From the NCBI GenBank assembly GCA_003024785.1, contig PUQB01000525.1:77071-141070 (forward strand): DNA of 64,000 bases, in the 5' to 3' direction. The notes beneath the pieces are model-generated. The model worked only from the letters and a program-made list of their open reading frames with translations. It did not search any database and was not told the origin of the DNA. Of this stretch, positions 1,755 through 51,593 are shown one piece after another (within the stretch, counting starts at the first letter, position 1; each line of letters begins with the position of its first letter). Made by a program: the position numbers and the translations under genes. Origin of the DNA: Selaginella tamariscina (lineage: Eukaryota; Streptophyta; Lycopodiopsida; Selaginellales; Selaginellaceae).

Positions 1755-1781
1755 ATGCAAGTTGTAACTAAAATGGGCATG
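1755..1781 (+). repeat. Left terminal inverted repeat of element A
   Basis: Begins ATGCAAGTTGTAACTAAA and ends GGGCATG. It matches the reverse complement of 16571-16597 at 25 of 27 positions (differences at positions 6 and 19). Confidence 0.87.
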
Positions 1782-2292
1782 GCTATAGTCCCATTTCCTA
1801 ATAATTAGCAATTTTAGCTATTATTAGCATTTTTCTAGAATATATGTTTGAAAAGAGAATATTCTTTAGAATATATGTTTGAAAAGAGAATATTCTTTAG
1901 AATATATTTTGAAAAGAGAATATTCTTTAGAATATTCTATTTTGTATTCTACCCTTTAATAAATTATAGCATTCATTGAACAACAATTAATAACATTATA
2001 AAAGTAGAATGTATTAAATTATATAATATATTGCCTAATATAATTAAGGAAGAGCATAAGAGGTACATTTATAAATATTGATGTTGTTATTAAAATATTA
2101 ATATTTAAATATAACATTATTAATTAAAATTTATAGTAGTAATATATATATAAAATCCTATAATAATATAGTCAATCTTCCATATCATTTTTTAAATTTA
2201 TATAGTTAAGTATACAATTTGGTACTATTATTAAAGAGTTTATAATAATTATGAATATTAAATATATGATATTTTATAATTTTGTAATTGCT
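1782..2292. other. AT-rich left subterminal region of element A, no gene
   Basis: Strongly AT-rich sequence between the left inverted repeat and the 3' end of the DUF7869 gene. Apart from the 31-bp tandem repeat listed separately I see no coding potential here. Confidence 0.7.
1838..1930. repeat. 31-bp tandem repeat with GAATATTC
   Basis: Three consecutive copies of a unit of about 31 bp beginning GAATATATGTTTGAAAAGAG and ending in AATATTCTTTA. The last copy has lost two bases. Each unit holds GAATATTC, a palindrome with the nGAAnnTTCn form of a plant heat-shock element. Confidence 0.85.
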
Positions 2293-5200
2293 TTAAGCTT
2301 CAGAAAACATACATTCCCTTGCAGTTTTGTTAATCGTGACTTTATCAACGCTTCTTAACATCCACCCATATCGAATGGATTTAACATTTATAAAACATGC
2401 TGGGTCTTTTTGATTGGGAGACCATGTTTTCTCTAGGCATCCATTATATCTTTCGCTCTCCTTCTCGTGTCGCCTTTTTTGTGGTTTGAACCATGCAACC
2501 TTAACAATACTATTTTTTGTGATTACTTCAGGTGTGTCGATAATTTGACCCATCCAAATAGGCTGATTATATGACGCATCTGGAGTAATGAGAACCATCA
2601 TTAGTTTTTGAAGATCCTTGCAGCAATCAAAGTATGCTTTAGGTTTTTGGTTCCTTTGTCCAACAAAGTGTGGGGTTTGCACTTCACATCACTACTGGCT
2701 TCTATGTCGTCTATGCTCAGTGATGTCATTTCAATCTCCTCTCGCCACCTTGTTTTAGGCCAGAAAGGGTGTTGCAATTCTGTACTTGTGACAGTAGGCC
2801 CTTCCAACTCTCGAACAACAGTCTCCCAATAGTTGACCACATGCTTATATAGTTCTGAGTAACCAGTTGCCTTATCAGAATTCTTTGGCATCGATTTTTG
2901 AACCCATGCCACATATTTTTTGATGCCATCAATAATAACCTCTTGTTCCTTGAGCTGGGCACTCAATGGAATAGGGTCTGGTTGTCCTTCTGGGAGAAGT
3001 GGCTTTCCATCCTCTCCACTTTTGAAGAGCATTAAGCCCTCTTTCGGTAACCACTCCTGCTCTGATGGCCGTAACTTGTACTGCATAATAGGTATACCAT
3101 CTCGTATGGAGAAAAAGAATTGTAGCGGCACAAGGTGACCAACTAAAGAATCACTCCCTTCTTTTATATACTCCTTGAGAAATTTTTTGAAGTCTGGCAC
3201 CTCAGTCACAAGCAAAGCACAACTTTTTTTGGAGATGCAATTTTCAAAAAGATTCATCATATGCGGTAAGGTAAGTGCACTTGTCCTTTTTGTAGAGTTG
3301 GAGACCTTGCTGAAGAACGCATCAATATCTTCATGAGTGTGACCAACCATAAGGAAACTGAGCGTGATTGTTTCAAACACACCTTTGGCAACAAGCATTG
3401 ACAAGTATGCTAGCACATATCTAGAAAATAAAAGTAAGTATGAGCTTGAGAAACCCTTAAGTAAAATGATTTACCTATTTTTGTTCTCGCCTGCACAATT
3501 ATCCATCTGTAAAAGCAAATGACGAGGAAGCTTATTTGATGTTGAGGACACATGTACACTATTTGAGCTAGATCCCTCCACTGAACCTGAACTCTCAACA
3601 GGGCCATCTGTTTTTTGTGCAGGTTGCTGACAATGCCTCTCATATTCCCAAGTAGCCTCAAGTGCAGATGTGTTCATGAGAGCATTATGTAAAGGTTGAA
3701 GGTGTTGTTTCTTCACTTTGAGATCACTGATAGGACTTGTCTGTGAGTGGGCTTCAAGGTTTCTGAAACACATGGCTAACGACCCAATAGTGAAATTGGA
3801 GTCGCTAGACCAATGTGGAAGTGAAAAGTGTCCATATGACTCACAACCGTGTCCATGTGTTAGCACACCTGTCAATGAAATCGGAAGTTTCATGACATTT
3901 CCAAGCACTTTGGTGTTGCAAAGAGCTTTGGAATGCTGGTCTTTGAATGATCCATCTTGTCATGGATCAAGCACAGGTACTCTGATGGGCGTGACACAGA
4001 AAGCATGCGGTGTGCATAGTACTGAGACCGGCAAGTTTGTTGTGCAATCATGTGGGCCTCCATCTTCCTTTGAATGGTAGTGATCTCCACCAAGGTTTTT
4101 GCACAAGCCTCTGCAGCCTTCAATGATGTACAAGTGTCACACTTAGAAAAGCTAGAGTGTTTTGCAATCTCCACATCCTTAAAATGAGTATTCCATATGT
4201 TGTTGAAGGTACCAGTGCAGATTGCTTGGAGCCCCATCAAACTGAGGCACTTGTTCACATGTTCACACAGTTTCAATTGAGTGTAGATTGAAGGTAAAAC
4301 CTTGAGATTTTCCCTGACCCCTGCATTTGTGGTTCGGCATTTGTGAGGCATCCTGTCTGCATTTGCTTCCACAAAAGCCTTGAGTATCTCTATGGCTGCC
4401 ATGATGTGAGAGCGGGTTTTGACCAAGCGAGTGTTCCCATGAACTGAGGTTCGCGCTCCATCTAGCCACTCATCCCTCCGACGGTAGAACGTGGTCTTTG
4501 GGATCCCGTATATACTGTACCAAGCTTTGAAGAGATGGCCACCTTATTAAATACCATGGATGTACTCTGATAACCTGTGTCCGAGGCCATTCCATCAATA
4601 CACCCAGTTAGTGCAGCATATACAAACTCATGCCTTTGCTTTTGGGTGAGCATACGAAAGACATGTCTACATTGGGTAATTTCATTCCGGTCTGCCATCT
4701 GACAACACTTCTTCTTGCAACAGTCAATCATGGAAATGCTCGTAACACTTTCGGAAGATGTAGGATCCATCTTTACCCTCTTGCTGAAACTTGCAGGGGA
4801 AGATCTACAACCCATGAATCGCCTTTTTCTTACAATAGGACCAATGCAAGGAACCTCTTCAAATATGAGTTGTTCTTCCGGGTTGTTATTATTGAAATCC
4901 AACCCAGAATATGTTGAACCATCTTGCCGTCTTAATTCAGATGTTCGCCACCTCACGAGGGATCCAGGATACAATGTGCCATTAGGTGAAACCTCTGTCA
5001 CAACTACACCCACGAAGTCGGACCCTAGTTTCTCTTCTGACACTGCTTCCATTGGATTTATAGCTGTGATGATGCCTCTTCCGACTTCAATCTCATGAAG
5101 AAAGAGAATCACCTCATCCATCACAGCAGGCAAGCCATCATCTGGTAAACTCGTGCTACTATTTGTTTGTGACTCTGCATATTCTGTGTCAGCCTTGACT

Positions 5201-5421
5201 TCATCCAAATTCCACAATACAGGAGAACCCTCCTCAAATTCCATTCCCAGAACCTCAACATGCTTGTAAATGGTGTTCACCCATACGTACACACAAGATC
5301 CTTGGGCAATATTGTGACATGATGCATTATTATCTCGAACTTCCACAGTTCCAGTGCCAACTATCTCGTTGTTCCGAAGAAGACATACTTTATCTCCAGT
5401 ATTAAACATATTGTCCTGCAC
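2293..5421 (-). pseudogene. DUF7869-type transposase-like gene of element A, frame-broken
   Basis: On the minus strand, four large open segments follow one another. The N-terminal segment (5421-4462) has a Tudor/agenet-like opening (GDKVCLLRNNEIVGTGTVEV) and a cysteine-rich patch (DCCKKKCCQM). The frame breaks by one base near 4540; the continuation reads FKAWYSIYGIPKTTFYRRR and then a Cys-rich helical part (KCDTCTSLKAAEAC, about 4130). A second one-base break lies near 3900, before LPISLTGVLTHGHG. The DUF7869 core follows: LLLQMDNCAGENKNR, split by a 54-bp phase-2 intron (3421-3474), then VGHTHEDIDAFFS. A third break near 2660 leads to the C-terminal YNQPIWMGQIIDTPE segment. The conserved Asp residues of QMDNC and HEDID suggest an RNase H-like fold, but this is inferred. 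A splice acceptor-like TGTGCAG just upstream (about 5416-5422) may mean an upstream exon. Confidence 0.75.
3421..3474 (-). other. 54-bp spliceosomal intron in the DUF7869 gene
   Basis: Donor GTAAATC and acceptor TTTTCTAG on the minus strand. Splicing joins ENKNR to YVLAYLSMLV, which restores the continuous DUF7869 core. The size fits the other introns of the window. Confidence 0.8.
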
Positions 5422-5560
5422 ATAAATAATTGTATTATTTATGATATCTGTTTATGCAATATTTTTAAGAAATCTGAATTACGGTTACTTAATAATATGC
5501 ATATGCAATAATACATAATTATGTTTAGAGATAATATCTCATGTTTGATTAATACAACTG
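5422..5560. other. AT-rich 5' flank of the DUF7869 gene
   Basis: Short AT-rich stretch between the DUF7869 gene and palindrome array 1. No coding potential. It probably holds the promoter or an upstream intron of the minus-strand gene. Confidence 0.5.
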
Positions 5561-6080
5561 ATGGGCGGGATTAATCCCGCCCACGAATCCCTCCGACGAG
5601 GAACGGTCGGCGGGATTAATCCCGCCGCCGACTCAACCCCTTCGAGGAGAGTCGGCGGGATTAATCCCGCCGGCTCTTCCTTGTCGGAGGGAGTCCAAGG
5701 CGGGATTAATCCCGCCCACAATTCTTACGACGGGGAATGGGTGGCGGGATTAAACCCGCACATAACTCTCTCCAAAACTATGATTTCAAAGAGATCTCGG
5801 GATAAATCCTGTCCCCAAATCCTTAAAACAGGGATGTGGTGGCGAGATTAATCCCGCCACCCCTTCCCTGCCTCCTAAAATGGTTGGCGGGATTAATCCC
5901 GCCGACAACTCTTTCTAATAAATTCTGGTAACTCTTCATCAGTTGAGAAGGTTATCGGCGGGATTAATCCCGCCACTCTTTTTCAGTGGCGGAGAAGCAT
6001 TGCCCGAGAGATGGTGGCGGGATTAATCCCGCCACCTCTTCGAAGAGGCAAAAAGAAATGGCCGGATTAATCCCGCCGCC
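5561..6080. repeat. Palindrome array 1 (GGCGGGATTAATCCCGCC)
   Basis: About ten copies of an 18-bp sequence that is its own reverse complement, or close variants (GGCGGGATTAAACCCGC, GGCGAGATTAATCCCGCC). The first five start about every 45 bp (near 5563, 5609, 5652, 5698 and 5743); the rest are looser. The spacers of about 25-28 bp are GC-rich and also carry short self-complementary pieces (TCCGACGAGGA, CTCCGACAAGG). The array adjoins the 5' end of the DUF7869 gene, so it could act on its promoter, bind the transposase, or bind the ParB-like protein. Confidence 0.93.
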
Positions 6081-8570: not shown

Positions 8571-8623
8571 AAGAGGCGGCGGCTGTGAAATCGGCGGCGG
8601 CGGCTGTGCACACAGGTGAGATC

Positions 8624-8654
<31 letters not shown>

Positions 8655-8918
8655 ATATGTATAGGAGTGTGCGTATAAATTTATTTATTAGTTTTATCTC
8701 TCGCACACACACGCACACTCCTGTGTATGTATATGTGTGTGTGGGTGTGTGTTTGTTTATCTGTATGATTTTATTTGTTTCGCTCACACACGCATACACA
8801 CGATATACATATACACATATATATATACCTATATACATATATACATACATATATTATGTGTACCAGTATCTGTAAATTTTTTTTATTGATCTATCTCTCC
8901 CACACACACGCACACTGC

Positions 8919-8984
<66 letters not shown>

Positions 8985-9729: not shown

Positions 9730-11620
9730 CCTCGAGCGGCGGGATTAATCCCGCCGCTATATGGTTGGGGCCATGGCGGCGGGATTAATCCCGCCGCCGA
9801 GGCCCTTCACGCAGGCTATGGGCGGCGGGATTAATCCCGCCGCTCTACGACAAACCGAAGAGCGGCGGGATTAATCCCGCCGCCCATGGCCTGTGTGAGG
9901 GGCCTCGGCGGCGGGATTAATCCCGCCGCTCACCCATGCCCTGCGCGGAATGCGGCGGGATTTATCTCGCCGGCAATGGCCTGTGTGAAGGCCCTAATGG
10001 GCGGGATTAATCCCGCCGGATTCCGCGCAGGGCATTTACAGGGGATGGGCGGCGGGATTAATCCCGCCGCTCATGAGGCTAACCGAAGAGCCTGCATGAA
10101 AGATCCTGCACGGAAGGCTAACCGAAGAGCCTGCATGACATGTCCTGCGCGTAAGGCGGCGGGATTAATCCCGCCGCCCAGGGAATTCACGCAGGACATG
10201 AACGGCGGGATTAATCCGGCCCCACGCTCATGCCCTTCGCGGAGGGCGGCGGGATTAATCCCGCCGCTCAGGCACTTCCGCAGGATATAAGCGGCGGGAT
10301 TAATCCCGCCCCCACCCATCCCTGTTCAAAATGCCGCAGCCAATATATATGTGTGAGCGCATGATTTACGAGAGGGCGGCGGGATTAGTCTCTCGATGTT
10401 GAATCAATCCCGACTAACTCTGTCTGAGACGGAGAAGGTTTACAAAATACCAATGGAGGGAACTGAGAAGGGTGGTGGGATTAATTTCACCATCCCTTAC
10501 ATGGTGGGCGGGATTAATCCCGCCGCGTACGCATGCCCTGCGCGGAATCGGGCGGGATTTATCCCGCCGCCATTGGCCTTCCTGAAGGGCCTAGGCGGCG
10601 GAATTAATCCCGCAAGATTTCGCACAGGGCATTGGCGTTCGACGGGATTAATCCCGCCGACTAAGGCCTGAGTGAAGGGCCTGGGACGCGGGATTAATCT
10701 CGCCGTGTACGCATGCCCTGCGCGGAATCGGGCGGGATTTATCCCGCCGCCATTGGCCTTCCTGAAGGGCCTAGGCGGCGGGATTATCCCGCAAGATTTC
10801 GCACAAGGCATTGCCGTTCGGCGGGATTAATCCGCCGACTAGGCCTGAGTGAAGGGCCTGGGACGCGGGATTAATCTCGCCGCGTACGCATGCCCTGCGC
10901 GGAATCGGGCGGGATTTATCCCGCCGCCATTGGCCTTCCTGAAGGGCCTAGACGGCGAGATTAATCCCGCAAGATTTCACACAACATTGCCCGTTCGGCG
11001 GGATTAATCCCGCCGACTAAGGCCTGAGTGAAGGGCCTGGGACACGGGATTAATCTCGCTGCGTACGCATGCCCTGCGTGGAATCGGGCGGGATTTATCC
11101 CGCTGCCATTGGCCTGCCTGAAGTGCCTAGGCGGCGGATTAATCCCGCCCTATTCCGCGCAGGGAATTGGCGTCCGGCAGGATTAATCCCACCGCATAGG
11201 GACCGAGTGAAGGCCCTGGGCGGCAGGATTAATCCCACCGAGCCTTCAATGCCTGTTGGAGGAATGAATCCCGCCACCCTTCCTTTGTTTTTCTCCATTG
11301 GTGAGTCGGACCAATCCCAAACGTTTCTGTTTGAGACGTAGAAGGTTTTCAACATACCAATGGAGAGAATTGGGAAGGGTGGGGAAATTCATTTAACCAT
11401 CACTTACATGGTGGGCGAGATTAATCTCGCCCCTTTCTGGAGTCACTGAAGGGTGTGAGAAATAAATCCTGCCCAGTTCTCTCTGAGACCGAGAAGGGTG
11501 GCAAGATTAATTCCGCACTCCCGTTCAAGGCCTCCAGAAAGGTGGCGAGATTAATCCCACCACTCTTTCAGGAGGCATTGAAGGGGTGGCGAGATTAATC
11601 CCGCCGCACCTTCCATGTGA
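9730..11620. repeat. Palindrome array 2 (core GGCGGGATTAATCCCGCC, often extended to 24 bp)
   Basis: More than two dozen copies of the palindrome. The left part (9735-10310) is best preserved, with many 22-24 bp perfect copies of form GCGGCGGGATTAATCCCGCCGC at about 40-48 bp pitch. Variants (GGATTTATCCC, GGATTAATCTC) accumulate rightwards, and copies beyond 11300 are degenerate. Spacers are themselves related and partly complementary to one another: CATGCCCTGCGCGGAAT and ATTCCGCGCAGGGCAT are inverted forms, and GCCTGTGTGAAGGGCCT recurs. The array ends about 330 bp upstream of the ParB-methyltransferase start. The centre GGATTAATCC also contains two inverted TAATCC homeodomain-type cores. Confidence 0.93.
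10527..11240. repeat. Higher-order repeat, four units of about 178 bp, within array 2
   Basis: Units start at GTACGCATGCCCTGC at about 10527, 10707, 10884 and 11063 (spacings 180, 177, 179). Each unit contains three to four palindrome variants in the same order: a GGATTTATCC form, a half-decayed form ending CCCGCAAGATTTC, a GGATTAATCCCGCCGACT form and a GGATTAATCTCGCC form. The array therefore grew by duplication of a multi-palindrome block. Confidence 0.85.
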
Positions 11621-11720
11621 ATATATATGTGTATTAGTATATATAAGTTGCATATCTCATTTTATTTACTTTTATCATCTTATCATAATATTTCGAGTAA
11701 AAGCTAGGAATCTATGTAAA

Positions 11721-11805: not shown

Positions 11806-13173
11806 TAATTACGTCTACTTCTCTCTGTGTATTATTTTTGTATATTCGGGTTTATACAAGTGTGTGTGCGTTTTTATATGATTTGTATTCATAGTGTATT
11901 ATTTTGCAGAAGGATGATTTGATCAAACAAGGAGATCGAGTCATTAGTATGGAGTCGTCGTCAAATTCTGGGTAAGAATTAAAATAAAATCTGTTATACT
12001 CGGATACTTGAACTAATCATTTTTGTATTCAAATGTGGAATTGAGGTGACATTAAAGACAAGAGTAGGAGAAGAGATGGGCAGGGGGATTCTGGAATCAA
12101 CTTGGCCATATTTTAAGATAAATGGGAAGCGCATTGGAGCAACCATGGCTGCTGTCAAATTAACCTCTGTCACATCTCATGGACAAGCAAAACAATGGAA
12201 AGTAGATTCGCTAGTCAAAACACCCGAAAGCAGGCTGCGAACCCAGATTGGACGATTCTCGACACATATGCCTTGTTCCATCCAATGTCACGTTCTCAGA
12301 TCCAGAGGTCGTCAGTTACAACATTAATTTCGAGTGGTTTTGTCGACTTGTGGATAATGACGTTCACGTGTTCACTAATGATGTTGACCTTGGAGTTCTT
12401 CTTCACAACTCAACGAAAGCCCATCTATAGAGGGGATCCATCTGGATGTCTACTTCGAAAATCTTCAGACTCATCGAGTAGGTGTATTGTCAAGAGATAT
12501 TGCTTCACAATACAGAAAATCAGCAAGTGAAGCAATCTTCCCTCTTCACATTGAAGAAGAACACAGCGACATCATAATGGAGATTAAGAGGATGGCTCGG
12601 TCTCAGGTTCTCTACAGATCACGTTCAATTTGCTTAGGGAGCTTTGGGAGCTAGAAGAGTGTACCGAGAACACTAGAACAACTGCAACCAGGAACGTGTA
12701 GCTGAGCTCATGGAGAAGATGAAGGACGACAATTCTTATACCGTTCCACATAATGCTGTTTTGTGTCCATACTATGAAAGAAGGAAGGGCGCTGACAAAG
12801 TCTGGATCACAACACCAGAACAACTCATGAAGATTCAGACGGAGAATAAAAATCTATCAAGTACTACATCATTAGTGGCCAGCACACAATAACGGCAGCC
12901 CAACGACTTCTCGATGAACACAACAAAGGAACGATGGCAACAAAACTTTCCGAGCATACCCGTGAGAAGCTGACAAAAAGATCGGCGTTTTTAGCTAAGC
13001 CGAATCTCACAATCGAGCAGTACCATAAGTTATCGGCGGAATGGGACGCTGCCGACACCAACCACTACAACAGCAAAATATGGGAGAAGTTTAAACACAC
13101 GCGAGCCGTGTGGGAATCTCTTCAGCGACCACAAAGAGCTACCGCAGGGAATACACAATCTGCGGAATACCGG

Positions 13174-13234
13174 GTAAGCAAATTGTTTGGGCGGGATTTA
13201 TCTCGCCGGTATATTAATCTGTCTTTTTCCTCAG
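13174..13234 (+). other. 61-bp intron containing a palindrome copy
   Basis: Donor CGG|GTAAGC, acceptor CCTCAG|AGAGTTG. Splicing joins SAEYR to RVEEIAAVDFAQ. The intron contains GGCGGGATTTATCTCGCC, a variant of the array palindrome, at about 13190-13207. Confidence 0.75.
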
Positions 13235-14077
13235 AGAGTTGAAGAAATTGCAGCAGTTGATTTTGCCCAGGTGGGCGGGAAGGAAACATCCTTTCTGATG
13301 ATGTTGATTTCTTGCCCCGAAGATAGGATCTTTGCCAAATGGTTGGGGATTATGGAATCCTTTTCAAAAGGAACACTGAAGAAGAAGCAGACAAGTGAAG
13401 GGGAGCCCTCAGAAAAGTCTGCAAAGAAACCCAGTAAGACGCCGAAGGCTAAGTCTGTTCAATCTACAAAGGATGTAGACAACGATTTCAAGCTCACATG
13501 GTTGAAGCCTTTAAATGGAACAACGATGGAGGAGATGGAAGTCTTGGCTGATTTGGTGATCGATGGCAAACTACAAATTAATAACAGCAGCCCAACCTCT
13601 CCTTTTCATCTCAAGGCAATGGAGTTGAAGACGGTCAGGCATTTCAAGGAGTGGTTGGGAATACACTGCCACAAACTGGGTTGGACCTCGACTTCAACAT
13701 ATGAAGAGGTAGCAAATATTTGCATGTGACGAACGATGATATGCTTGTCGAATGGGTGAACCAATCGGAAGATCTAGGCAAGAATCTATTGCACGCCAAC
13801 GCCAAAAAGGAGAACATTGGGATGACGCCTTCTCTTATGGCAGTCCTTCAGCAGCGGAGAACCGAATTGAACCTTATAAAGGAGGATGCTACGAATCACG
13901 ACAAGCCCTACAGATGTTTGTTGTTAGATTCGGAGACTTTATGGGGTAACATCACTGCTTGTAGGAAACCGTTTCAATTGTTCGTGATGGATCGGCGGGT
14001 GTCAAAAAATCTTTCGACAGATAGGGCACTAGAGGATCTGGTGGAGAAACTTAGCCGTGCAAGCATATACATAGAAG

Positions 14078-14130
14078 GTATTTATTATTGAATTCATGCT
14101 TGCGCTCTTCACTGATACCTACTTTTTCAG
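14078..14130 (+). other. 53-bp intron in the element A methyltransferase
   Basis: Donor GAAG|GTATTT, acceptor TTTTTCAG|GTATTT. Splicing yields SIYIEGIYFLILAHVTDTF, a continuous beta-strand/helix stretch after motif IV. Confidence 0.75.
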
Positions 14131-15145
14131 GTATTTATTTCTTGATTCTTGCTCATGTCACCGATACTTTTGCCTTCGCCTTCGCCAAGAAGAATAGACA
14201 TCGTTGGACAGGATTTTATATGAACGATGCTAATCCCAAGTGCATTGATACGTTGTTCACTTGGTTGTTAGGAATGCGCCAAACAATTTCAAGCTTCCAA
14301 ATGACTGGCCAGGCATCTGTTTGCACTCCAACGGCCCTGAACCTCCATCCGATACACCGATAGGTATGAGTGACGTATTCGGCAATGTACGTTATCCAAA
14401 CATTACAAGTCAAGCGGCACGGAGCATCGTCAACTTGATCAGGGGTCCTCACAGTGATGCGTGGGTTTTTGACTACTGCACTAGGGGGTCCGTCTTGAAG
14501 GAGTGTTACCTTCGGCATACATGTGTGTTTGCCGTTGAAAGGATAAGACCATGGTTGAGGACCTGAACAAGTGGATAGATTGGGTCTCAACTGAGTACCC
14601 CAACGATCCATAAAGGCGTATTTGAGAAAGTTCCCTCCAGATAAGTGCGATAGCTCTGAAGGTGAATCTGGTTCAATCTCGGAGTCTGAGAACGAACTTC
14701 AATCAGATATTAGACCGGAAGTTATCTCGAGGAGTACAGAACATTCGCACACTCCAGGACCCATGGAAACATCAATAGAAGATGCAGAAGATCTTGAACC
14801 ATCTCACAAGCGGCTTAGACCTTCTTCGCCTCACTCAGAAGGTAATAGCGAAGAAGAATTGATAATGAATTGATAGAGTGATGAATAGTTGTAAATGAGT
14901 GTAACATAAGGCATTTTTGTATATTTCTTTTATATTTGTACAGAAAATAAATTCTCAAGGATTAATGAAGCTTTTAGTTCAAACATGGGTCACACATTAA
15001 CAAGGTAAATAATATACCTTGATAATTTTAAGGTCAGCTAATTATCATTTTGCAGATGTAATGAAATAATTGAGAACATGGATTTTCAGCATTGCCATGA
15101 GGTAAGAGAGGGGTTTGGCGACAATTTCTTGTGCCACATGTCAGA

Positions 15146-16324
15146 ATGACAGAGTTCATGCAGGAAATGGATAATAATGCAGCTCAAAACATCGTTACCA
15201 TGGGGGCCACTTCATCATCATTTTTATTGGCTTCAGTTCCGAAATCAATTTCTTCAGCGCATGCAATATCTGAATCTTGTAAGGATGATGTACAATTAAA
15301 TGATGAAGGGATAGGCAACGAGATAGTGGCAACGGATAAATGTGAAAGGGAGCAAACAAGTGATTTGCAAAGTATTCAAGAGGCAACGCTATCTCATGTT
15401 ACTCATGGCCATATTGTGTTGTTGGATGTCAATGGTGTTCTGCTTCATCGACAAAGGCCCAGGATAGAAAAAAGAAATCAAACAAGGAGATTTCATTCCT
15501 TGTCATGGTAAATTTCGATATGATATTATTTTTCGTCCAGGGTTGGATCGTCTCTTTCAAAAGCTTAAGGAGATGGGTGCGCTTGTGGGGATTTGGTCAT
15601 GCATGCAGATTCATAACTTAACACCGCTGTTGATTTACTTAAGAAACATTGTAGTGTTGCAGAAGAGGTGATTCGTAAAGATTGGATTTTTGACCAGCGA
15701 ATATGTTATAAACCTCTCGAATTTCACAATATAAGAAAGGAAAGCAAGCCATACTTCTTCAAGAATGAAAGAATAATTGGGACTCATGGGGAGATCAGTC
15801 GCTTAAGGATAATGAAGAACGCACATATCTTAGTAGTAGACGACTCTCCTCAGAAGGCTATGCTCAACCAAAACATTGCTTGTATTCATCCAATCACTTT
15901 CGATCCATATTCTGATACCGATATCATGGATGAGCTAGTGAACTACTTGGATACGTGCCTCAGAAAGAAGAATCTCGAAAATTTTTGTGAGCAGTATCCA
16001 CCGTATCATACATTTCCTGAAGCTTTTCTTTCTCGTGATATTGAATTTTATAAAATGAAGGATAGCAACCGGGCGCTTTATAATATTATTCTTAAGGAAC
16101 GTCAGTTTTTAGATGAGCCTTTATGCAGACCTTCTCTTATCACATCTTATGTATTAACAAGGATGGCAACTCCCAATTGCATTCGTGAGAGTGTTAAGTG
16201 GTGGCAACAACATCAAGATATTGACCAAAATGATTTGATTAATCCGGAGAGTGATGATTTAGACAAAATGAAAAGATTTCTTTGTATGATAGAAGAAAGT
16301 ATTTATAAAAAATTAACATGTTGA
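15146..16324 (+). pseudogene. FCP1/NLI-type HAD phosphatase-like gene in element A
   Basis: The segment from about 15146 encodes a Ser-rich N-terminus and then GHIVLLDVNGVLLHR (about 15408-15450), the nucleophile loop of a HAD/FCP1-type phosphatase with DVNG in place of the usual DxDx(T/V). Broken frames follow: GLDRLFQKLKEMGALVGIWS (about 15542-15600), then VIRKDWIFDQRICYK, ILVVDDSPQKAMLNQ (about 15824-15868, the acidic motif), and NYLDTCLRKKNLENFCEQYP, which resembles the C-terminus of plant FCP1-homology proteins. At least two frame breaks lie between 15500 and 15670. FCP1-type enzymes dephosphorylate Ser/Thr residues such as those of the RNA polymerase II tail. It may be a host gene captured by the transposon, which I infer from position only. 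The start is uncertain. Confidence 0.68.
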
Positions 16325-16570
16325 TAAGAAAATGATTTCATTTGTAATTATGTTTGATAGTATTTCTTCATTATTGTAAACTATTTTTAGAATAATATGA
16401 ATATTCTAAGATATTTTAGGAATATTCCTTACTAAGTAAGGTTATTGAAGGATTAATTAATTAATTAATTAATATTTAAGGCTTAATTACATATTAATTA
16501 AATGATTAATTAATAATTAAAACTTAAGTATTAATTAGTAATTTATTTTATATTCCCATTTTTCACGTAT
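16325..16570. other. AT-rich right subterminal region of element A
   Basis: No gene. Contains TTAATTAATTAATTAATTAA-type runs and GAATATTC-type palindromes at about 16396-16430, mirroring the GAATATTC repeats inside the left end. Confidence 0.7.
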
Positions 16571-16597
16571 CATGCCCACTTTAGTTACAACGTGCAT
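16571..16597 (-). repeat. Right terminal inverted repeat of element A
   Basis: Reads CATGCCCACTTTAGTTACAA and ends CGTGCAT on the plus strand. Its reverse complement matches 1755-1781 at 25 of 27 positions. Confidence 0.87.
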
Positions 16598-16601
16598 GTG
16601 T
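16598..16601. repeat. Right target-site duplication of element A (GTGT)
   Basis: Same tetranucleotide as 1751-1754, followed directly by gypsy reverse transcriptase sequence (ACTCGAAGTGTCCATACC) that also occurs in the sister copy near 20900. Confidence 0.85.
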
Positions 16602-23216: not shown

Positions 23217-23220
23217 GCTA

Positions 23221-43260: not shown

Positions 43261-43324
43261 CAGGGTACACTCCAGCCAGGAGTGTCGCCATTTGGAGGCT
43301 TGGGGCCCAGGAGGCCTGGGCTCG

Positions 43325-43400
43325 AATATTCAAGAATATTCTAGAATATTTTGGAATATTCTTTCTGGTCGGCAGTATTGGCCTCAGTCGGCAAAAAAGA
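43325..43400. repeat. Left subterminal GAATATTC cluster and CAGTCGGCA motifs of element B
   Basis: GAATATTC-type palindromes follow one another as alternating GAA/TTC at 2-base spacing, a form that fits a near-perfect heat-shock element array. They are followed by GGTCGGCAG and CAGTCGGCA. This is downstream of the methyltransferase stop codon (43475), so a subterminal transposase-binding role is equally possible. Confidence 0.75.
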
Positions 43401-44848
43401 ATTCTATTAAAAACTGTTGTATTTCTTTTTAATTTTTTTTTTATTAGCTTAATTTATTACTCAATATACATTAGCTAAAGTTTCTTCTTCATCTTAAGTA
43501 AAGCTGCAGTTCTCGAACCACCAGATACGCTTGGACGTGGAGGTGTTTGAGTAGGTAACTCTTCTGGTCTAATGTTTTCTGCAAGCTTGTTTGATGCCAA
43601 CCTAGAGAGTTCGAAACTCTTTTCGGTTCCTATAATATCTTTCCGGCTCGACGGCAGCTAACAATGATGACCCGGTTCCGGAACCAATATCCCAGACTAG
43701 GTCGCCAGGTCTACTGAGACGCTCGATCAAAAGCTGCATGAGTCGAACACTCTTCGGTTGAATCATAATCCTGCACAATCTTCCATTAGGATAAACATAG
43801 CAAAGACTTCCTTACCAAGCCTCCTGATAACGGTCGGCAGTGTCGATGAGGATCGTGTTCGTCAACGCCAGAGTGTTTGGCCTCTTCGACTTCTTCTCAG
43901 AGCTTTGCAGCACCAAGAGAACTAACAAGTTATCCTGCCACATAGACCAAGTTAAACTTGAACTTGAATAGCTAGCTTACCTTAATTTGTCACGGTATCC
44001 CCAGCCTCGTGCACGGTAAACGCTGTAAGTCCTGCAACCTCCAAGTTGATTACTGCAGCCGCCTGAATCACCGCCGAAACAGAAGGAGAACTCGCGAAGA
44101 CGACCCATGAAACCACTCGCTGCCAAGTGCATTCCACTGAACTGCAAGGCCTCCTCAAACTTCACCGGATCTAGCTGCACAATGTCCTTGTTTGATGCTA
44201 GCACCTCCATATACAAGCTCATTGGGCAAGTCGAGGATGATGAGGTTGAAAGCCGTATTCACCTACCACTTCCTGGAACAACGTTTGTGACTCAACCGTA
44301 TGTAGGTCTGTCAACCTGTTCTCGGAGCTTGGTGTACACCTCTGTCTGGGAAGCACCTGGCTCGAAGAGAAAGACCTGCTCATCTCCTCCATGTCGCACA
44401 CAGCTAGTCGTAGGATCCACGGGATGCAGCCAGGTCGGGATGAAGGTCATCAGGTCGTCCTTGATGTCCAAACTAGCTACAAGTGGCTACCTCATTGATT
44501 GTAAAGTCGAATGCCGGCGGAGGTGCTGTAGAAGAGCTTGGTCCCGCTCCCGATCCCTTTGCAGGTGTAGTTGTCTTCCGCACCGTCTTCTTCATCTTGC
44601 TCTTCTTGATAGCCTCTACTTCTTCTGGCTCCCAAACAATCGCTGGTAGATCATTGGCGTGCATGTCGAATAGTGTGCTCTCCCAAGCTGGTGGCTGTTG
44701 CGACGGACAGTCGAGCCAGAATGGAACATGCTCCCGTTCGAACGGTGTTAGAGCTCCTCTGCTCTTCGACCACATGTGAGGCTCGCTTGTATGATCTGTC
44801 CACAGCTTCATCGTATGGGACGGTGTCATTTGCTTCGCCAGTATGAAC

Positions 44849-44894
44849 CTGCAACACAAAGTCAGACAGTAGCAATGCTGGATTGAAAGCTTAC
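44849..44894 (-). other. 46-bp intron in the element B gene
   Basis: Donor TGGAG|GTAAGC and acceptor GTTGCAG|GTTCAT. Splicing joins RRMIW to RFILAKQMTP. Confidence 0.75.
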
Positions 44895-45758
44895 CTCCAT
44901 ATCATCCGACGCGCAGATTCCTCACGCTCCAGAAACTCATTCGGCTCCATCGAATAAGTGAACCGTATGCAGTCATGGAAGGGCTGAAAGACCAGGCACT
45001 TGCTCCGAATTCTCATCTCGTCAAACCAGCTCATGAAGTCGACATCCGTTCCAACTTCTTCACCATCCTCTCGCAACCCCTTAAGGATCTGAATGGCTTC
45101 CTCGCGCACAGCCTTCCAATATAAGTCCAAGGTGAACCACTTGATCCACTCTTTGTCCTGCATGCCCGGTAGCCCAAGTGTCTGTTGTTCTGCCTTGGAT
45201 TCGAGACGGGTGAGCTTGTTGAGGTATCGGAGTCGCAGCATGTTTGGAATCTTCGCCCTTGACATCGCATACAGCTTCTCAATGCCCATCCAGCGACACT
45301 GCTTATGAGAGATGTTTGTCACCTTCTGGAACCACTCCTCCCCCAAGTCTGGGTCTATGATGGAGAGGAACTTGTGCATACGCTTGTCATGCTTCTTGTA
45401 TACTAGCTGCTTAGGTTCACCTCAACCTGTGGATTGCCCTTAGCACTGGTGACTGCTCTGTCGAGATCATCGTCGATCTCGTTCTGCACATAGAACAAGT
45501 TAAAAATTTCTTTCCTATAAATTAAATCGGAGGTTACCTTGAAAAGTATCTTTGCGCAGATCAGGTTCGGAAGAGGATGCCAAGCCGTCTTTCCTGATGA
45601 ACTCTCCTTCCACTTCCGCACCTCAAGACGATCAACCTCCGTGAGTGACTCGAGGATTTTCTGAGTTCCTTCTGTACTAGTGCAGACCGCCTTTACAGCG
45701 AGGAGAATATGTGGTAGCGTTGTTTCCACAGATGTTGCTGAAGATCTGTTCAACGAAA

Positions 45759-45801
45759 CTGTAAGTCTAAACTCTTAACAAAAAGAAAAGAAAATACTCA
45801 C
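45759..45801 (-). other. 43-bp intron in the element B ParB gene
   Basis: Donor AACAT|GTGAGT and acceptor GACTTACAG|TTTCG on the minus strand. Splicing gives FQSIN followed by ISLNRSSATS. Confidence 0.75.
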
Positions 45802-46779
45802 ATGTTAATCGATTGGAACATCGAAACCAGTTGAAGAATGTCGAGGTTCTCCGTGGAGATGAAACTCGATCGAACGCGAATAGCCCATCGCTGGTTGTCC
45901 TCTGCATCCTCTCGGTACAGCTTCTGCAAAGCCTGTAGCCTATGGTTCCCGTCCCAGCAGCTAAACTTCCTGTTTGAGAGCCTTGAAGCCCACTGTTTGT
46001 ACTCCGGCTGAGTAAGAGCTTGCTCGAAAGACCGGTGCTGCTCGTACTGAATCGTGTCCTTCGACAGCTCCGATAGCTCCTCAGCAGTGAGTCGATCTCC
46101 GATGGACAGAATGAACAAGGCCGTGTTGCGTAGATAACCAGCCTTCTTCAACGATGACACCAGCCTGTCCAAGTCCCCTGGGTTCACTCGTCGAACCACC
46201 TCGTTGGAATGTATTCTGCAGATGGGCACATCAGGAGGATCACCAAGTCCCTTGATAGTAATTTTGTCGAGCAGGTTTGCTGAGCTCTCCAAATGCAGGC
46301 TCGCCGGTATGCTGTATAACTCCTTCGGCTCCTTATCGCTCTTCGCCTTCTTGCCTTTTGAATCAGCTTTCCCGCGGCCTCTCTTTTTGCTGACTGCCTC
46401 CTCCAAGTCGTCCTCGCTAGCTTCAGCTGCCTCTGTCATCTGCACTTGCTCGTTCAGGACTGCAACCTCAGCGGATGAAGGAGGCAACTGCGACGAGCTC
46501 TCCGGGAAATCTGTGATTGTTGGTGGAGGCTGTTCTTGCTCAACTGCTACTACTCCAGACTGAGTCACTGGAGGATCCTCCTTTGTACATTAGATGGTTC
46601 TCCTCTCTTGCCTCGCTTCTGCTTCGATATCCTCTTCTCTTCCCGTGGCTCTTCATCAGGCGCAGTCTCTAGTAGACGTTTTGAAGCTCTCACCATTTTG
46701 AACTCTGGAAAGTAAACACACAAGTCAATTGATGAGGAGTCAAAATAAAAAAACAAACAAAGATGACTAACCTTGTGGC

Positions 46780-47740
46780 TGCCGACTCAAGCTAGATGCT
46801 GCCGACCCTCTCAGTCGGCAGAGAGATGTAGAAGAAAAAACCTGCCGACTGAGATAGTTTGTGCCGACTCTGTCAGACGGCACAGAAGAGATAATGGTGC
46901 CGACTGAGATAGGATGGTGCCGTCCCTCTCAGACGGCACAAATGGGAAGACCCATTAACTGTTTTAAAAGAAATACTTGAGACGCAAAGAAAAAAAAAAC
47001 TAATTCAAAATACCTTGTGGCTGCCGACTGAAGAAGGATGGTGCCGTCACTCTCAGTCGGCACAAATGGGAAGACACTATAACTCTGAAAAAAAACATTG
47101 TTATACGGATACTTGAGCCGCAGAGCAAAATATAAACAAATTCAAAATACCTTGTGGCTGCCGACTGAAGAAGGATGGTGCCGTCACTCTCAGTCGGCAC
47201 AAATGAGAAGACACATTAACTCTGAAAAAAAACAATGTGATACGAATACATGATCCAGAAAGCAAAAAATAAATATATCGAACATACCTTGTGGCTGCCG
47301 ACTGAACTAGGATGGTGCCGTCACTCTCAGTCGGCACAAATGGGAAGACCCATTAACTCTGAAAATAAAAACCTTGTGATACGAATACTTGAGCCAGAAA
47401 GCAAAAAAAAACAAATCGAAAATACCTTGTTTTTGCCGACTGAACCAGGATGGTGCCGTCACTCTCAGTCGGCACAAATGGAAAGACCCATTAACTCTGA
47501 AAAAAAAACATTGTGACACGTATACTTGAGCCGCAAGGAAAAAAATAAATAAATCGACGATACCTTGTGTTTGCCGACTGAACCAGGATGGTGCCGTTGC
47601 TCTCAGTCGGCACAAATAAGAAGACCCTATATCTCTGGAAAAAGAAATACTTTGAGCAGCAAATCATAAAATACAGAAATTACACATACCTTGTGGCCGC
47701 CGGCTGAGCAGGATGGTGCCGAGAATCTAAATCGGCACAG
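46780..47740. repeat. 137-bp tandem array with inverted TGCCGACTG / CAGTCGGCA (element B)
   Basis: Six clear units begin TACCTTGTG or TACCTTGTT at about 47011, 47148, 47285, 47423, 47561 and 47687 (spacings 137, 137, 138, 138, 126). A looser one at about 46769-46940 holds three further motif pairs. Each unit has TGCCGACTGAA, about 11 bp, GGTGCCGT, and CTCAGTCGGCAC, so a 9-bp inverted repeat sits within about 40 bp. AT-rich linkers with AAAAAACATTGTGATACG follow. The array lies just upstream of the methyltransferase start at 46696 and within the shared promoter region of the two divergent genes. Confidence 0.92.
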
Positions 47741-48236
47741 AAATCTCCATTGTTATACTTGGGCGCTGCACGAATCGAGTCGAAATGGATGGCGCCGCAG
47801 TGGAAACCGTAACTCTGAGATCTGAGATTAAAGAAACCCTCTGGATCTGCCGCAGTGGAAACAGATCTGAGATTGAAAGAACCCTAGCCGCAATGGAAAC
47901 AGTAAACCCTATCTACCAAAAAACCCTAGCCGCAATGAAAACAGTGAACCCTACGGAATAAATGTGACATTAATATTTAGGGTTTATTTTAAAATATGTG
48001 AATAATTGGTAAATGTGAAGATATTTCAAATCATAAAAGGTAGAAATTAAATTAAATCGGTGATACTAGAGAGGACATCATTAAGAACACTGTGAACTGG
48101 GCAGCATAGAATTAATTATATACAAACGTGTATTCACGTTTATTGTTAACGATTGTAATTTTTTTTTGGTAAGAGAAAGTGTGTTTAATCTTTTGCTTTG
48201 CTTTCCTAAACCACCGAGCTTTCTCCTTGCGTTGTC
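47741..48236. promoter_or_regulatory. Remainder of the divergent intergenic region of element B
   Basis: No gene. Three to four imperfect repeats of CCGCARTGGAAACAG followed by AACCCTA/AGATCTGAGATT at 47790-47960, then AT-rich sequence up to the transposase start. It lies between divergent starts, so it probably contains the promoter of the plus-strand gene. No unambiguous TATA box was assigned. Confidence 0.5.
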
Positions 48237-51200
48237 ATGGCCAGAGTTACCTATGAAGGCATTGACAAAGATTTCCCAGTCGATGAAGATGGAAATGCTT
48301 TTGTGTTTGAACATGATCTTCACATTGCTTTCAACATTCCTTGTTGGTTCAGTATACATGTGGTTCAATTGATGTCAGTTTCTGCGAGTTCTGGAGAAGA
48401 TGTGGAGTTGTTACCAGAAGGCAATGCATCAAACCAGTTTGTCTTTTACACATTGTGCCCGGCAAAGGGCCCGTTGTTCAGGTTGCGGACAGAGGAGCGT
48501 GAGGAATCCATGCTGGTGTGTCTTCTAAGAGCAGACAAATGTAGGATAGGGAAGGATCTCATTGGTTCGTCTGAAGTTAAACGAGTCTCTGAACTACCGC
48601 AGATATACAATGGAAATGTCATTTTCGAACTTCCCCCTAAGACAGAAAGCACAGAGAAGTACTCGGGGATGAATCGCAAGGATGGCTGCTACCATTGGAC
48701 ACACCCGAGCACAACACACTGGCATGTTCCGGCGCGAGTCAGTCGAAGTTCATGTGTCGGCATCTCCAATGCATCAATCCTACTGCCCCTACTTGGCTTT
48801 TGAGAAGAAAGCAAATGAATGTCACTTCAAGGGTGCTGTGGAGAAGGCAAAGACAACTGAGACAGGCAAAGTAATAGGCATAAAATGTAAGCATTGTGGA
48901 GAGGAGCCATTGCTGGTGCACACTTGTCCGGCTTATGTGTACTACATTCTGCCAGACGACATTTCTTTTACAAGGTTGTTCATTCACAGAGGTGTTCATC
49001 AGCATCCAGTCAGCCCCTCCAGTGTCAGCTTCAAACGTTCAGCGAGCCAGATCTAGTGTCAGCAACGTGGTAAAGAGCAGTCCGCGAACCAATCAACGAG
49101 TGATTGAGTTTCAAGCCGCGCGTGAGCTCATCTTTGAAGAACTTTTCAAGGAAGAAGGAGAAGTCTCGTACACTGGTTTACTCTCAAAACTTGAACCTCT
49201 AACAAACCATCGAAGGTATTTTTTTTTAGATCTCTACACACTGACGTGACCTTTTCTTTAGGACTCGGGACTGGATTACACAATCAAGACAGAAGGAGAC
49301 ACACTTTAGAGAGGGTTACGAGGGTCTTCTGGAGCTGAAGACAAAGCTGCCAATACCTTTCATTCACGTCATACATGTTCCAGGGATGGAACTGCATGGT
49401 GCTGAGGAGCAGCCTCTGATCTTCAAAATGACAGTTGAGGGACCGGGTTCAGGAGTTGAGTACATCAGAAGGTGTCAAAGTGGAGGAGACCTTCATGATC
49501 AATGGGTTGTTCTGGACCACACGCACCGCATACCAGACTGGGCGACAATTGGAATACACCTTTATGACCCATTGTAAGTTGTAAAACTCTTCATAACACT
49601 TTCTAATCTTCGTTATCTAACGCTCTCTTGCAGTGTCAGATCCATGGTGACTATAGCTTACGCAGATATGTGCCGCGAAGATAATGTTGCAGTGCTGAAG
49701 TTCTTGAACACAATGCTAGAGGTTTGTAAGAAGCAGGGTTTGGAGAATGTCAACTTTGCTGGTTTCATGTCGGATGAGGCTGGAGCGATATGGATAGCCT
49801 TGCGCCAAGTATTCAACAACGGAGCAAAGATGAAAGGGAGGGAAAGAAGCTGTCTGTTTCACTTTATGCAATCCGTGCGTCAGGTGACAAAGAAATGGAT
49901 CGCAGAAGAACATCGCGAAGAACACATGAAGCTTGCTCGTGCCTGGCCTGCAGCACTGAATGAACAATCTAAGAAAGAACAACTGGCAATTCTCGAGTCT
50001 TTTGGGAAGGACGAGCGTCAAACATTCGAGCTTTGAAGACATGGCTGTCTTGGTGGATCAGGCATGAGGACCACATCTCCATGGCGGAACTGGGAGACAT
50101 GACAGAAGAAGGACTCGCGAGCGTTCCAACTACAAACAATGCTGAAGTGATTCACACGAGAGCAAGAAGAGCAAGATTGGCCAAAAGAGTACCACTGCTG
50201 GAGGCGACAATGTTAGACCTCACCGATGCAGTTATGCAGAGTGCGAAGGTGAAAGCGGCAATAGAAGGGAGGTATACAGGGTCAGGGCCTTCGAAGGAAA
50301 CTCTGTTGAAACGAGTGCAACGCAAACTCTCTGAGGGGAAAAGTGTATCTCCATCAACAATTATTAATCTGGTGGAAGGCGAGGAACACTTGACCAGCCC
50401 GGAGTTCACGAGTACCACTAACGTTCGAGTGCAAACTGTTAGGAGAACAGTCACAGGAACAGAACAGTCTGATGCTCGACGTTCACACAGACATGATGTA
50501 GAGTACACAGAGCGGGTGGTCCAAAACAACAGGAGAAAGAGGTTAAGGTTCGAAGAGGTTTCGGAGAGAGAGATTGCTCAAACAGAGTGGGCCATCAGAC
50601 GAATCGGAGCATCCAGTAAGGTTAAGTGTTTGGGGATGAATCAGGAAGGAACTGCTCTGTGTGGAAAACCAATCGGTTATCCAAGCAGAGTGCCAGCACC
50701 AGGATTCTATGGAAAACGAATGTACATTGATGCCTTGGGGAATGAGGAGTATGTACAACAGATGATGTGGTTCTGCCCAAAAGATTCAGGGTGTTTCACG
50801 CGGCCAAACGGCAAAATTCTTCGGTCACGAATTCCAACACCACCAACGGTTTGGCCTGTGCTCAAGGAAACGAAGCTGACAAGTGAGGAGGTCAGAGAAC
50901 TACAGGATGCAGGCTTTGTTCTGGAAGGTTTACAGGGGATGGCAGGAAGAGTAGATGAGGGTCAGAAGGACAAAACACCATCGCCACCACGTGGAGCTGG
51001 ATCTACAACAATTCCACCTTTCGAAGGACGTATGGTTCGGACTCCAACAAAAATGTCTAAGGAACAAGAGAAGAATTTCCGCAAGGCCAAGACGTTTTTA
51101 GGTTGTGTGCGAAATGTTGAAGTGACAGCTAGAGGACGGAAGGAGGCTTTCGTTGTGTCGGCAGGAAATGACTCTGCAAAGGTGACTATTAATACTTATC

Positions 51201-51400
51201 CTTCATGCAGTTGTTCTACATTTCAGAAGAGCAAAAGTTGGAGCCCATGTGTACACATGTACTTCGTCTATAGCCGTGTGCTTGGCTTGAACCCGGAAGT
51301 CACATATTTTCTACAAAGGCGATCGCTCAGTGACATGGAGGTCCACCGTTTGCTGGTGAATTGCAACAGAGTTCATGACCCACCGGTGCTACAAGGATAA
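48237..51400 (+). pseudogene. MULE-type transposase with SWIM zinc finger (element B)
   Basis: Start ATG at 48237 (MARVTYEGIDKDFPVDEDGN). A Cys/His-rich N-terminal part resembles FLYWCH/WRKY-like MULE domains (KCKHCGEEPLLVHTC, then FIHRGVHQHPV, about 48885-49010). The catalytic region begins after intron 49216-49261 with WVVLDHTHRIPDW (about 49502-49540). Intron 49574-49633 follows, then GFMSDEAGAIW (about 49760-49795) and CLFHFMQSVRQ (about 49850-49882), the C..H hallmark near the end of MULE catalytic cores. The C-terminus has the SWIM finger CSCSTFQKSKSWSPCVHMYF (51206-51268). One-base breaks lie near 48730, 49010 and 50025. The two Asp boxes are intact and the third acidic residue is not assigned. 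The gene is divergent from the ParB-methyltransferase gene, with the 137-bp array between them. Stop at 51398-51400. Confidence 0.78.
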
Positions 51401-51434
51401 ATGGTTTAGGGTTTAGGATAATGTTTTATTAAGC

Positions 51435-51593
51435 CAGTCGGCATATATTAACCAGTCGGCATATTAAAAAAACTTATATATTCTAGAATATTCTTGAGAA
51501 TATTCTAGAATATGCTAGAATAACCCTAGAATATCCGCGAATATACTAGAATAATATGAAGCCTCCTGAGCCGGAGCTCCTTTTCGCCGAGAC
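51435..51593. repeat. Right subterminal CAGTCGGCA motifs and GAATATTC cluster of element B
   Basis: Two CAGTCGGCA motifs in direct orientation (near 51436 and 51453), then TTCTAGAATATTCTTGAGAA-type alternating GAA/TTC blocks and further AGAATA units to 51560. This mirrors the left end. Confidence 0.75.

What the first reader, a model, noticed from the sequence alone, without database searches (positions are those of the whole stretch)
1755..51593. Two unrelated DNA transposons share one plan: divergent transposase and ParB-methyltransferase genes around arrays of symmetric sites
Seen: element A has a DUF7869 transposase-like gene (minus), palindrome arrays, and a ParB-methyltransferase (plus). 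Element B has a ParB-methyltransferase (minus), an array of inverted 9-mers, and a MULE/SWIM transposase (plus). The transposases and the repeat sequences differ, yet the layout is the same. Established knowledge: bacterial ParB binds palindromic parS sites, and ParB-methyltransferase fusions occur in phages. Inference: the ParB-methyltransferase may be a module that recognises or modifies the element's own symmetric repeats, for instance to mark the element, protect it from silencing, or control the divergent promoters. I know of no described plant system of this kind.
Basis: partly seen in the sequence, partly recalled or inferred. Interest (0 to 1): 0.95.

Follow-up and report, generated by a model that had tools for sequence, protein, structure and literature searches.

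The report
Plant jumping genes with private site-arrays
Two unrelated kinds of jumping gene in this plant genome each carry a second large gene, resembling a bacterial DNA-binding and DNA-methylating protein, facing away from the transposase gene across arrays of repeated symmetric DNA sites, a layout that hints at a self-recognition system.

Summary
Element A (1755-16597; TIRs, GTGT duplication) has a DUF7869 gene and a divergent ParB-like/MTase-like gene, with 42 copies of GCGGGATTAATCCCGC (chance 0), 41 of them between the two genes. Element B (43280-51595; 9-10-bp duplications in 8 of 15 copies) has a ParB-like/N6-N4-MTase gene, a divergent MULE/SWIM-like transposase, and 23 half-sites TGCCG[AT]C in near-fixed geometry between them. 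Both belong to near-identical, high-copy families. I found a third family, C: its proteins differ from B's to synonymous saturation, yet the best non-coding match is the half-site TGCCGACTG, now in a 22-bp palindrome about every 40 bp. Of 8 loci picked by the MTase domain, 7 have an array. C palindromes number 1135 genome-wide (reversed control 0); on 6 of the 8 contigs listed they lie 3.15-3.17 kb from a listed MTase hit. Limits: no profile recognises ParB; the MTase catalytic motif is DLPN, not DPPY, in B and C; the half-site also lies at B/C ends, so the transposase may bind it. Transposon-borne ParB-MTases are published for a brown alga (green and red cases cited there), with the same binding hypothesis. 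New here: a plant case, a MULE-like carrier, candidate sites.

The parts
1751..1754 (.). A: target site duplication GTGT, left (right copy 16598-16601)
   Evidence: flanks are gypsy reverse-transcriptase sequence that a related copy in the window carries uninterrupted
1755..1781 (+). A: left terminal inverted repeat ATGCAAGTTGTAACTAAAATGGGCATG
16571..16597 (-). A: right terminal inverted repeat
   Evidence: same end in a second copy, L044
1836..1942 (.). A: subterminal GAATATTC repeats, left
16390..16431 (.). A: subterminal GAATATTC repeats, right
2296..5421 (-). A: DUF7869 transposase-like gene, frames broken in this copy
   Evidence: Pfam PF25273 E 8.6e-47 on the joined reading
5565..6076 (.). 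A: palindrome array 1, 10 sites, beside the DUF7869 gene
9739..11604 (.). A: palindrome array 2, 31 sites with up to 2 mismatches; 21 of 30 gaps are 44-46 bp
11949..14873 (+). A: ParB-like/MTase-like gene, frames broken in this copy; a palindrome lies in its intron at 13191
   Evidence: reading; fuller exons in copy L042; no profile hit
15101..16324 (+). A: NIF/FCP1-like phosphatase gene (cargo)
   Evidence: Pfam PF03031 E 5.5e-12
43280..51595 (.). B: whole element, 8.3 kb; 9-10 bp TSD in 8 of 15 other full-length copies, none found at this copy
43324..43362 (.). B: subterminal GAATATTC repeats, left
51476..51556 (.). B: subterminal GAATATTC-like repeats, right
43368..43393 (.). B: two half-sites at the left end
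51434..51461 (.). B: two half-sites at the right end
43475..46696 (-). B: ParB-like plus N6/N4-type MTase-like gene with several short introns, frames broken in this copy
   Evidence: PF01555 E 4.3e-7 here, 3.9e-9 with letters of another copy; hhalign to phage MTases probability 96.4
46780..47737 (.). B: array of eight units with half-sites at 0, +20, +34 (the last lacks the middle one) and a degraded ninth; part of it (46972-47643) is a 137-bp tandem repeat
48237..51400 (+). B: MULE/SWIM-like transposase gene, frames broken in this copy
   Evidence: SWIM below cut-off (E 0.0088; 0.0041 in family C); 9-10 bp TSDs; DDE residues read by eye

Best explanation
Each element is a recently amplified DNA transposon that carries its own sequence-specific DNA-binding accessory protein. 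The protein (ParB-like part plus, in B and C, a SAM-lobe methyltransferase-like part) recognises a half-site arrayed between it and the transposase gene, and so marks the element's control region, coordinating or shielding both promoters much as VANC proteins do for VANDAL transposons. Shown: element limits, gene layout, arrays, array-MTase linkage, half-site conservation between families B and C while synonymous sites are saturated, conservation of both protein parts between B and C. Inferred: that the ParB-like part is ParB-like in fold, that this protein is the binder, and that binding activates or protects rather than represses. Self-methylation is possible but not the preferred reading, because the catalytic motif is changed.
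For: Arrays far above chance. 7 of 8 MTase-selected loci have an array. C palindrome: 1135 sites, 0 reversed-pattern controls, 3.15-3.17 kb from a listed MTase hit on 6 of 8 listed contigs. B against C: 4-fold sites 21 of 89 identical, yet the best non-coding matches are the half-site, and ParB-like 58%, MTase 51% and 72%, transposase segment 76% aa identity survive. In A the array motif is not found near the element ends. A's transposase and its partner share an N-terminal domain (score 68, best of 2000 shuffles 53). A palindromic element (L039) keeps two such genes and the site array with no transposase match in 9.9 kb. VANC precedent: short motifs in tandem repeats of non-coding DNA bound by an element-encoded protein (passages of PMC5735166).
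Against: No ParB profile hit at E up to 10 in Pfam or in NCBIfam (at E up to 1). In B and C the half-site is at both ends too, as a transposase site would be, and the transposase is kept just as well. One MTase-selected locus without an array (L036, truncated gene). Two C-type arrays (C1, C13) have no MTase hit among the 150 listed. Within family B, pN/pS for the ParB-MTase rests on 12 changes (7 N, 5 S). A and B second proteins are hardly alignable.
Confidence: 0.5

Rival explanations
1. The half-sites are binding sites of the element's own transposase: at the ends for excision, in the array for auto-regulation or titration. The ParB-MTase does something else, such as acting on chromatin or repair.
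For: Half-sites at both ends of B and C; the transposase is conserved along with the half-site at least as well as the ParB-MTase.
Against: A's array motif is not found near A's ends. In B 23 half-sites sit in the intergenic array against 2 at each end. L038 and L039 have arrays and a ParB-MTase gene but no transposase match, though they could be mobilised in trans.
Confidence: 0.33
2. The protein is an active adenine-N6 or cytosine-N4 methyltransferase that methylates the element's own sites as a self mark, as the first reader and the Ectocarpus authors suggest.
For: SAM-binding lobe in B and C: PF01555 up to E 1.8e-9, hhalign probability 96-97 to phage DNA methyltransferases.
Against: Motif IV is DLPN, without the aromatic residue, in 29 of 29 B/C-type sequences, at a B-C divergence where synonymous sites are saturated; in A the apparent place reads DRRV. 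The pattern used accepted DLP or DPP only, so a quite different motif would have been missed.
Confidence: 0.15
3. The arrays are enhancers that capture a host transcription factor; the ParB-MTase is unrelated cargo.
For: Array motifs sit between divergent genes; A's palindrome contains CCCGCC, resembling an E2F half-site (recalled).
Against: B/C and A use wholly different motifs in the same host, and the C motif is tightly linked to the MTase gene. No host factor was tested.
Confidence: 0.1
4. Passive tandem repeats without function.
For: Tandem repeats arise by slippage; part of the A array has a 179-bp higher-order unit and part of the B array a 137-bp one.
Against: The half-site stands out between B and C after saturation and with a changed geometry; A motif CpGs show no excess of transitions (6 of 180 CpG bases against 18 of 270 other C/G bases, my tally).
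Confidence: 0.03

Closest known systems
Transposon-borne ParB-like + N4/N6 methyltransferase genes of algae (Sola1-1_Ec32 of Ectocarpus; green and red algal cases cited there)
   Same: [quoted passage not shown] the authors proposed binding and epigenetic modification of the element's own sequence (PMC12477816).
   Different: Here in a plant genome, in a MULE-like element as well, with candidate site arrays between the genes; the passages and section 5 part 1 that I read mention no arrays. ParB part not profile-confirmed here; catalytic motif changed.
VANDAL transposons and VANC anti-silencing proteins of Arabidopsis
   Same: Element-encoded protein, short motifs in tandem arrays in non-coding parts, motif differs between families (passages of PMC5735166 and PMC10398659).
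   Different: Not known to me as ParB or methyltransferase proteins (no comparison was run); demethylation was shown there, nothing functional is shown here.
TET/JBP genes carried by fungal DNA transposons of several superfamilies
   Same: One kind of DNA-modifying accessory moves between unrelated transposon superfamilies (passages of PMC12730594).
   Different: Different enzyme; no site arrays mentioned in the passages read; there the genes are reported as related, here A and B are hardly alignable.
Bacterial ParB-parS
   Same: Palindromic sites and a ParB-like box (recalled for ParB).
   Different: No ParB profile hit; arrays of up to tens of sites; a eukaryotic transposon; no partition function suggested by the data.

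Membership tests
MULE / Mutator-like transposon (B, C) | 8-10 bp target site duplication (recalled) | tested here: met
   exact 9-10 bp match at the ends in 8 of 15 full-length B copies, in some including one base shared with the element edge; 7 of 15 without a convincing one. C was not tested.
MULE / Mutator-like transposon (B, C) | MULE transposase domain in Pfam | tested here: not met
   no MULE-domain hit; so called MULE-like only
MULE / Mutator-like transposon (B, C) | SWIM zinc finger | tested here: inconclusive
   E 0.0088 and 0.0041, below the curated cut-off
ParB (ParBc domain) | profile match | tested here: not met
   no ParB family at E up to 10 in Pfam for A, B or C, in NCBIfam for A and C, or at E up to 1 for B; HMMER filters drop most matches above about 0.1
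ParB (ParBc domain) | ParB box (V.NP..R..n / G.H...A) | tested here: inconclusive
   read by eye in A (L042) and B/C; A against B 13 of 2000 shuffles; structure model useless, pLDDT 37
N6/N4 DNA methyltransferase | SAM-binding lobe (motif I) | tested here: met
   B and C: PF01555 over cut-off; A: not detected
N6/N4 DNA methyltransferase | catalytic (D/N/S)PP(Y/F/W) | tested here: not met
   DLPN in 29 of 29 B/C-type sequences; none found in A
Sola (A) | 4-bp TSD (recalled; one search listed no source that I read) | tested here: met
   GTGT on both sides of the window copy; no other copy tested on both sides
Sola (A) | Sola transposase homology | not tested
   no Sola reference was compared; DUF7869 is what Pfam names it
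VANDAL/VANC anti-silencing system | element-encoded protein binding an arrayed motif and removing silencing | not testable with these tools
   arrays present; binding and methylation need experiments

The most novel reading that the evidence does not exclude
Plant transposons run private ParB-parS-like recognition systems. A bacterial-type ParB/methyltransferase fusion with an altered, perhaps non-catalytic, active site acts as a sequence-specific marker of the element's divergent promoter, arose or was captured in at least two unrelated transposon superfamilies, and kept its half-site while the site geometry was rewired from spaced inverted pairs (B) to contiguous 22-bp palindromes every 40 bp (C).
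Probability: 0.3. Interest if true: 0.88.

Novelty: new variant of a known kind. Interest (0 to 1): 0.72.

Why it matters
The published algal ParB-methyltransferase accessory genes had a proposed role in recognising their own transposon; the passages I read report no test of it. Here is a plant genome with at least 150 loci of each of two kinds (capped lists), at least two unrelated carriers, and concrete candidate binding sites whose core outlasts saturation of synonymous sites. That makes the hypothesis testable with ordinary binding assays and modified-base sequencing, and it would be a second kind of sequence-specific self-recognition by plant transposons beside VANC.

Tried and rejected
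Heat-shock elements: the terminal GAATATTC repeats of B look like perfect HSEs, but in family C and L039 the repeats are 11 or 22 bp apart, not in 5-bp phase, so I dropped the idea; the repeats themselves are real (11 of 21 window copies lie in four ~200-bp end windows; 0 of 20000 random sets had all four occupied).

Phage origin of the ParB part: tblastn of the B ParB exon against 50,697 phage records gave 1 hit at E 4. The MTase lobe has phage relatives (589 records at E up to 1); the four I opened (of 40 listed) are stand-alone methyltransferases of 245-310 aa. Protein database: the joined B protein gave no hit at E 0.01 among 7997 scored candidates, the ParB exon none at E 0.1 among 280, the transposase exon none at E 0.001 among 7994. 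In viral contigs: the A palindrome 1 contig, judged chance and not followed; the B pair 0; transposase relatives 0. Structure of the ParB exon alone: pLDDT 37, not used; the second job was not spent because genome loci are not among the sources that tool names. A repeat that I suspected inside the DUF7869 protein was not significant (421 of 2000 shuffles). The whole-protein best match between A and B second proteins is a low-complexity linker (10 of 500 shuffles); transposase N-terminus against the B partner: nothing (135 and 240 of 500). The cytosine test of protection in A is weak because copies in an array are not independent. An early joining of the B frames hid motif IV; other copies showed it. 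The silent/replacement count for the transposase used stop-to-stop frames that include some out-of-frame tails. The genome-wide count of the A palindrome did not complete.

Prior-art searches for a land-plant case: (listings only); the one paper in which I saw a ParB-methyltransferase in a transposon was PMC12477816. Its refs 50 and 51 were not read (51 not held; 50 not looked up). PMC4738411 is not held. PMC12695648 (passages) has no mention of ParB. DUF7869 appears in no paper of that library.
Full report
What the window is. The window lies in a 300,702,823-base, 1391-contig genome (G000:C866:77071-141070). Short introns of about 50 bases, gypsy-type retroelements and a PPR-like open frame (all read by eye) point to a plant; the assembly size fits what I recall of Selaginella tamariscina, but no call names the organism (only looked the name up).

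Element A (1755-16597). A 27-bp terminal inverted repeat (ATGCA[A/C]GTTGTAACTAAA[A/G]TGGGCATG) with GTGT on both sides interrupts a gypsy reverse transcriptase; a related gypsy copy in the window (20849-21340) runs through the site. The same right end is seen in a second copy (L044). It carries a DUF7869 gene on the minus strand (E 8.6e-47), a NIF/FCP1-like phosphatase (E 5.5e-12), and a plus-strand gene without any Pfam hit. In another copy (L042) an exon broken in the window reads on as YPCRVKYCSVNPNFNYRPLNQERVAELMEKM, followed in the next exon by YYIISGQHTITAAQRLL, which by eye looks like a ParB N-terminal domain, but Pfam and NCBIfam give no ParB at E up to 10. Its methyltransferase half is not detected by profile. 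The exon 13178-13726 has at least 150 matches at 98-100% identity, the window's own included (150 of 4771 candidates scored).

A's arrays. GCGGGATTAATCCCGC with up to two mismatches occurs 42 times, none expected: 10 sites at 5565-6076 next to the DUF7869 gene, 31 at 9739-11604 next to the ParB-like gene (21 of 30 gaps are 44-46 bp), and one in an intron of that gene. None lies near the ends of A. L042 keeps the second array and the intron site. A's transposase-like protein and its partner share an N-terminal domain (Smith-Waterman 68; best of 2000 shuffles 53), weakly like Transposase_23 in the transposase (E 0.011, below cut-off).

Element B (43280-51595). Its array matches at about 100% over its full length 40 times in the genome, the window's own included (40 of 505 candidates scored). 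Of 20 other copies fetched by the array, 15 align end to end at 98.6-99.5%; L014 and L019 run into N, L018 and L032 into a contig end, and L033 has an inner deletion. Of the 15, 8 have an exact 9-10 bp repeat directly at the ends (in some cases one base is shared with the element edge), 7 have no convincing one; none was found at the window copy. The plus-strand gene is transposase-like: SWIM below cut-off, DDE residues by eye, no MULE domain in Pfam. The minus-strand gene ends in an N6_N4_Mtase lobe (E 4.3e-7 in the window, 3.9e-9 with letters of another copy); hhalign to four phage methyltransferases gives probability 96.4. The ParB-like part again has no profile hit.

B's array. Eight units repeat half-sites TGCCG[AT]C at 0, +20 and, inverted, +34 (within one base; the last unit lacks the middle one), and a ninth is degraded; 23 half-sites sit in the array and two at each element end; four more lie within the two genes, and five elsewhere in the window, against about 6.4 expected by chance in the whole window. 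In 18 of 20 fetched copies the array stretch has 23 half-sites, in one 22 and in one 16.

Test on loci chosen without regard to arrays. PF01555 finds at least 150 loci over cut-off (150 of 739 candidates scored). Seven of 8 have an array of half-sites beside the gene (at least four 9-mers within 1.2 kb); the eighth (L036) is a truncated gene. Five of 8 still have the transposase (L034, L035, L037, L040, L041; rearranged in L037, cut short in L035); L038 has none in 9.9 kb, L036 only a 44-residue piece, and L039 is a palindromic element of two such genes with no transposase match. The DUF7869 exon of A matches none of the 8.

Family C. L041 has the same divergent plan, with ParB-like/MTase and transposase genes far from B's. 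Where aligned (B read from L020), amino acid identity is 58% (ParB-like), 51% and 72% (MTase) and 76% (a 105-residue transposase segment), while third codon positions are 34-40% identical and 21 of 89 four-fold sites are identical, which is saturation. Between the two intergenic stretches the best BLAST matches (E 0.003 to 0.14) are all the half-site, for example CTCTCAGTCGGCACA; what follows (E 0.49 and up) mixes half-sites with A-rich and other short matches. In C the half-sites form CCCAGTCGGCATGCCGACTGGG, about every 40 bp. The core CAGTCGGCATGCCGACTG occurs 1135 times in the genome, the reversed pattern 0 times; the 50 sites listed fall in arrays on 8 contigs, and on 6 of these a listed MTase hit lies 3153-3166 bp downstream (on C112 the list ends inside the array).

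Catalysis. The N6/N4 catalytic tetrapeptide is DPPY-like (recalled); here it reads DLPN in 29 of 29 sequences (20 B copies, 8 MTase-selected loci, the window). My pattern accepted only DLP or DPP, so it could not have found a wholly different motif. In A the corresponding place seems to read DRRV. I therefore do not file these as active methyltransferases.

Selection. Among 15 B copies the ParB-MTase gene has 7 replacement and 5 silent changes (pN/pS 0.40), the transposase 8 and 10 (0.23, in stop-to-stop frames with some out-of-frame tails): few, and only suggestive on their own. The B-C comparison is the stronger evidence that both proteins are maintained.

Who binds the sites? In B and C the half-site lies at both ends and between the genes, so the transposase is a serious candidate. 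In A the array motif is absent from the ends, which favours a regulator there. No case that separates the two proteins within one intact family was found, and the genome-wide count of the A palindrome could not be obtained.

Known work. Dinatale et al. 2025 (PMC12477816; outline, passages and section 5 part 1 seen) report a 1104-aa ParB-like plus methyltransferase gene opposite the transposase in Sola1-1_Ec32 of a brown alga, cite green and red algal cases, and propose binding and modification of the element's own sequence. VANC proteins bind arrayed motifs in VANDAL transposons and undo silencing (passages of PMC5735166 and PMC10398659). TET/JBP genes move between fungal transposon superfamilies (passages of PMC12730594). 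I saw no plant ParB-MTase transposon in the listings, which show only the top rows of an open-licence library.

Verdict. Real, more than chance, high-copy and recent. The kind of accessory gene is known from algae; the plant setting, the MULE-like carrier, the arrays and the conserved half-site are what I found no report of. The mechanism remains inferred.

Noticed in passing
window 1836-1942, 16390-16431, 43324-43362, 51476-51556: GAATATTC repeats lie just inside both ends of both unrelated elements, and also near both ends in L039 and family C (L041); 11 of the 21 copies in the window lie in these four ends.
   Followed up: partly
L039 (C531) 665-8103: A palindromic element made of two inverted halves, each with a ParB-MTase gene and part of the site array, without a transposase match.
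   Followed up: partly
window 15101-16324: Element A carries a NIF/FCP1-like phosphatase gene as further cargo.
   Followed up: no
window 2296-5421 and 11949-14873: The DUF7869 protein and its divergent partner share an N-terminal domain resembling Transposase_23.
   Followed up: partly
window 54004-54479: A 217-bp tandem repeat that by eye shows strong inverted symmetry, perhaps a foldback or MITE-like element.
   Followed up: no
window 59678-61600: A long single-exon PPR-like open frame of 640 aa, read by eye.
   Followed up: no
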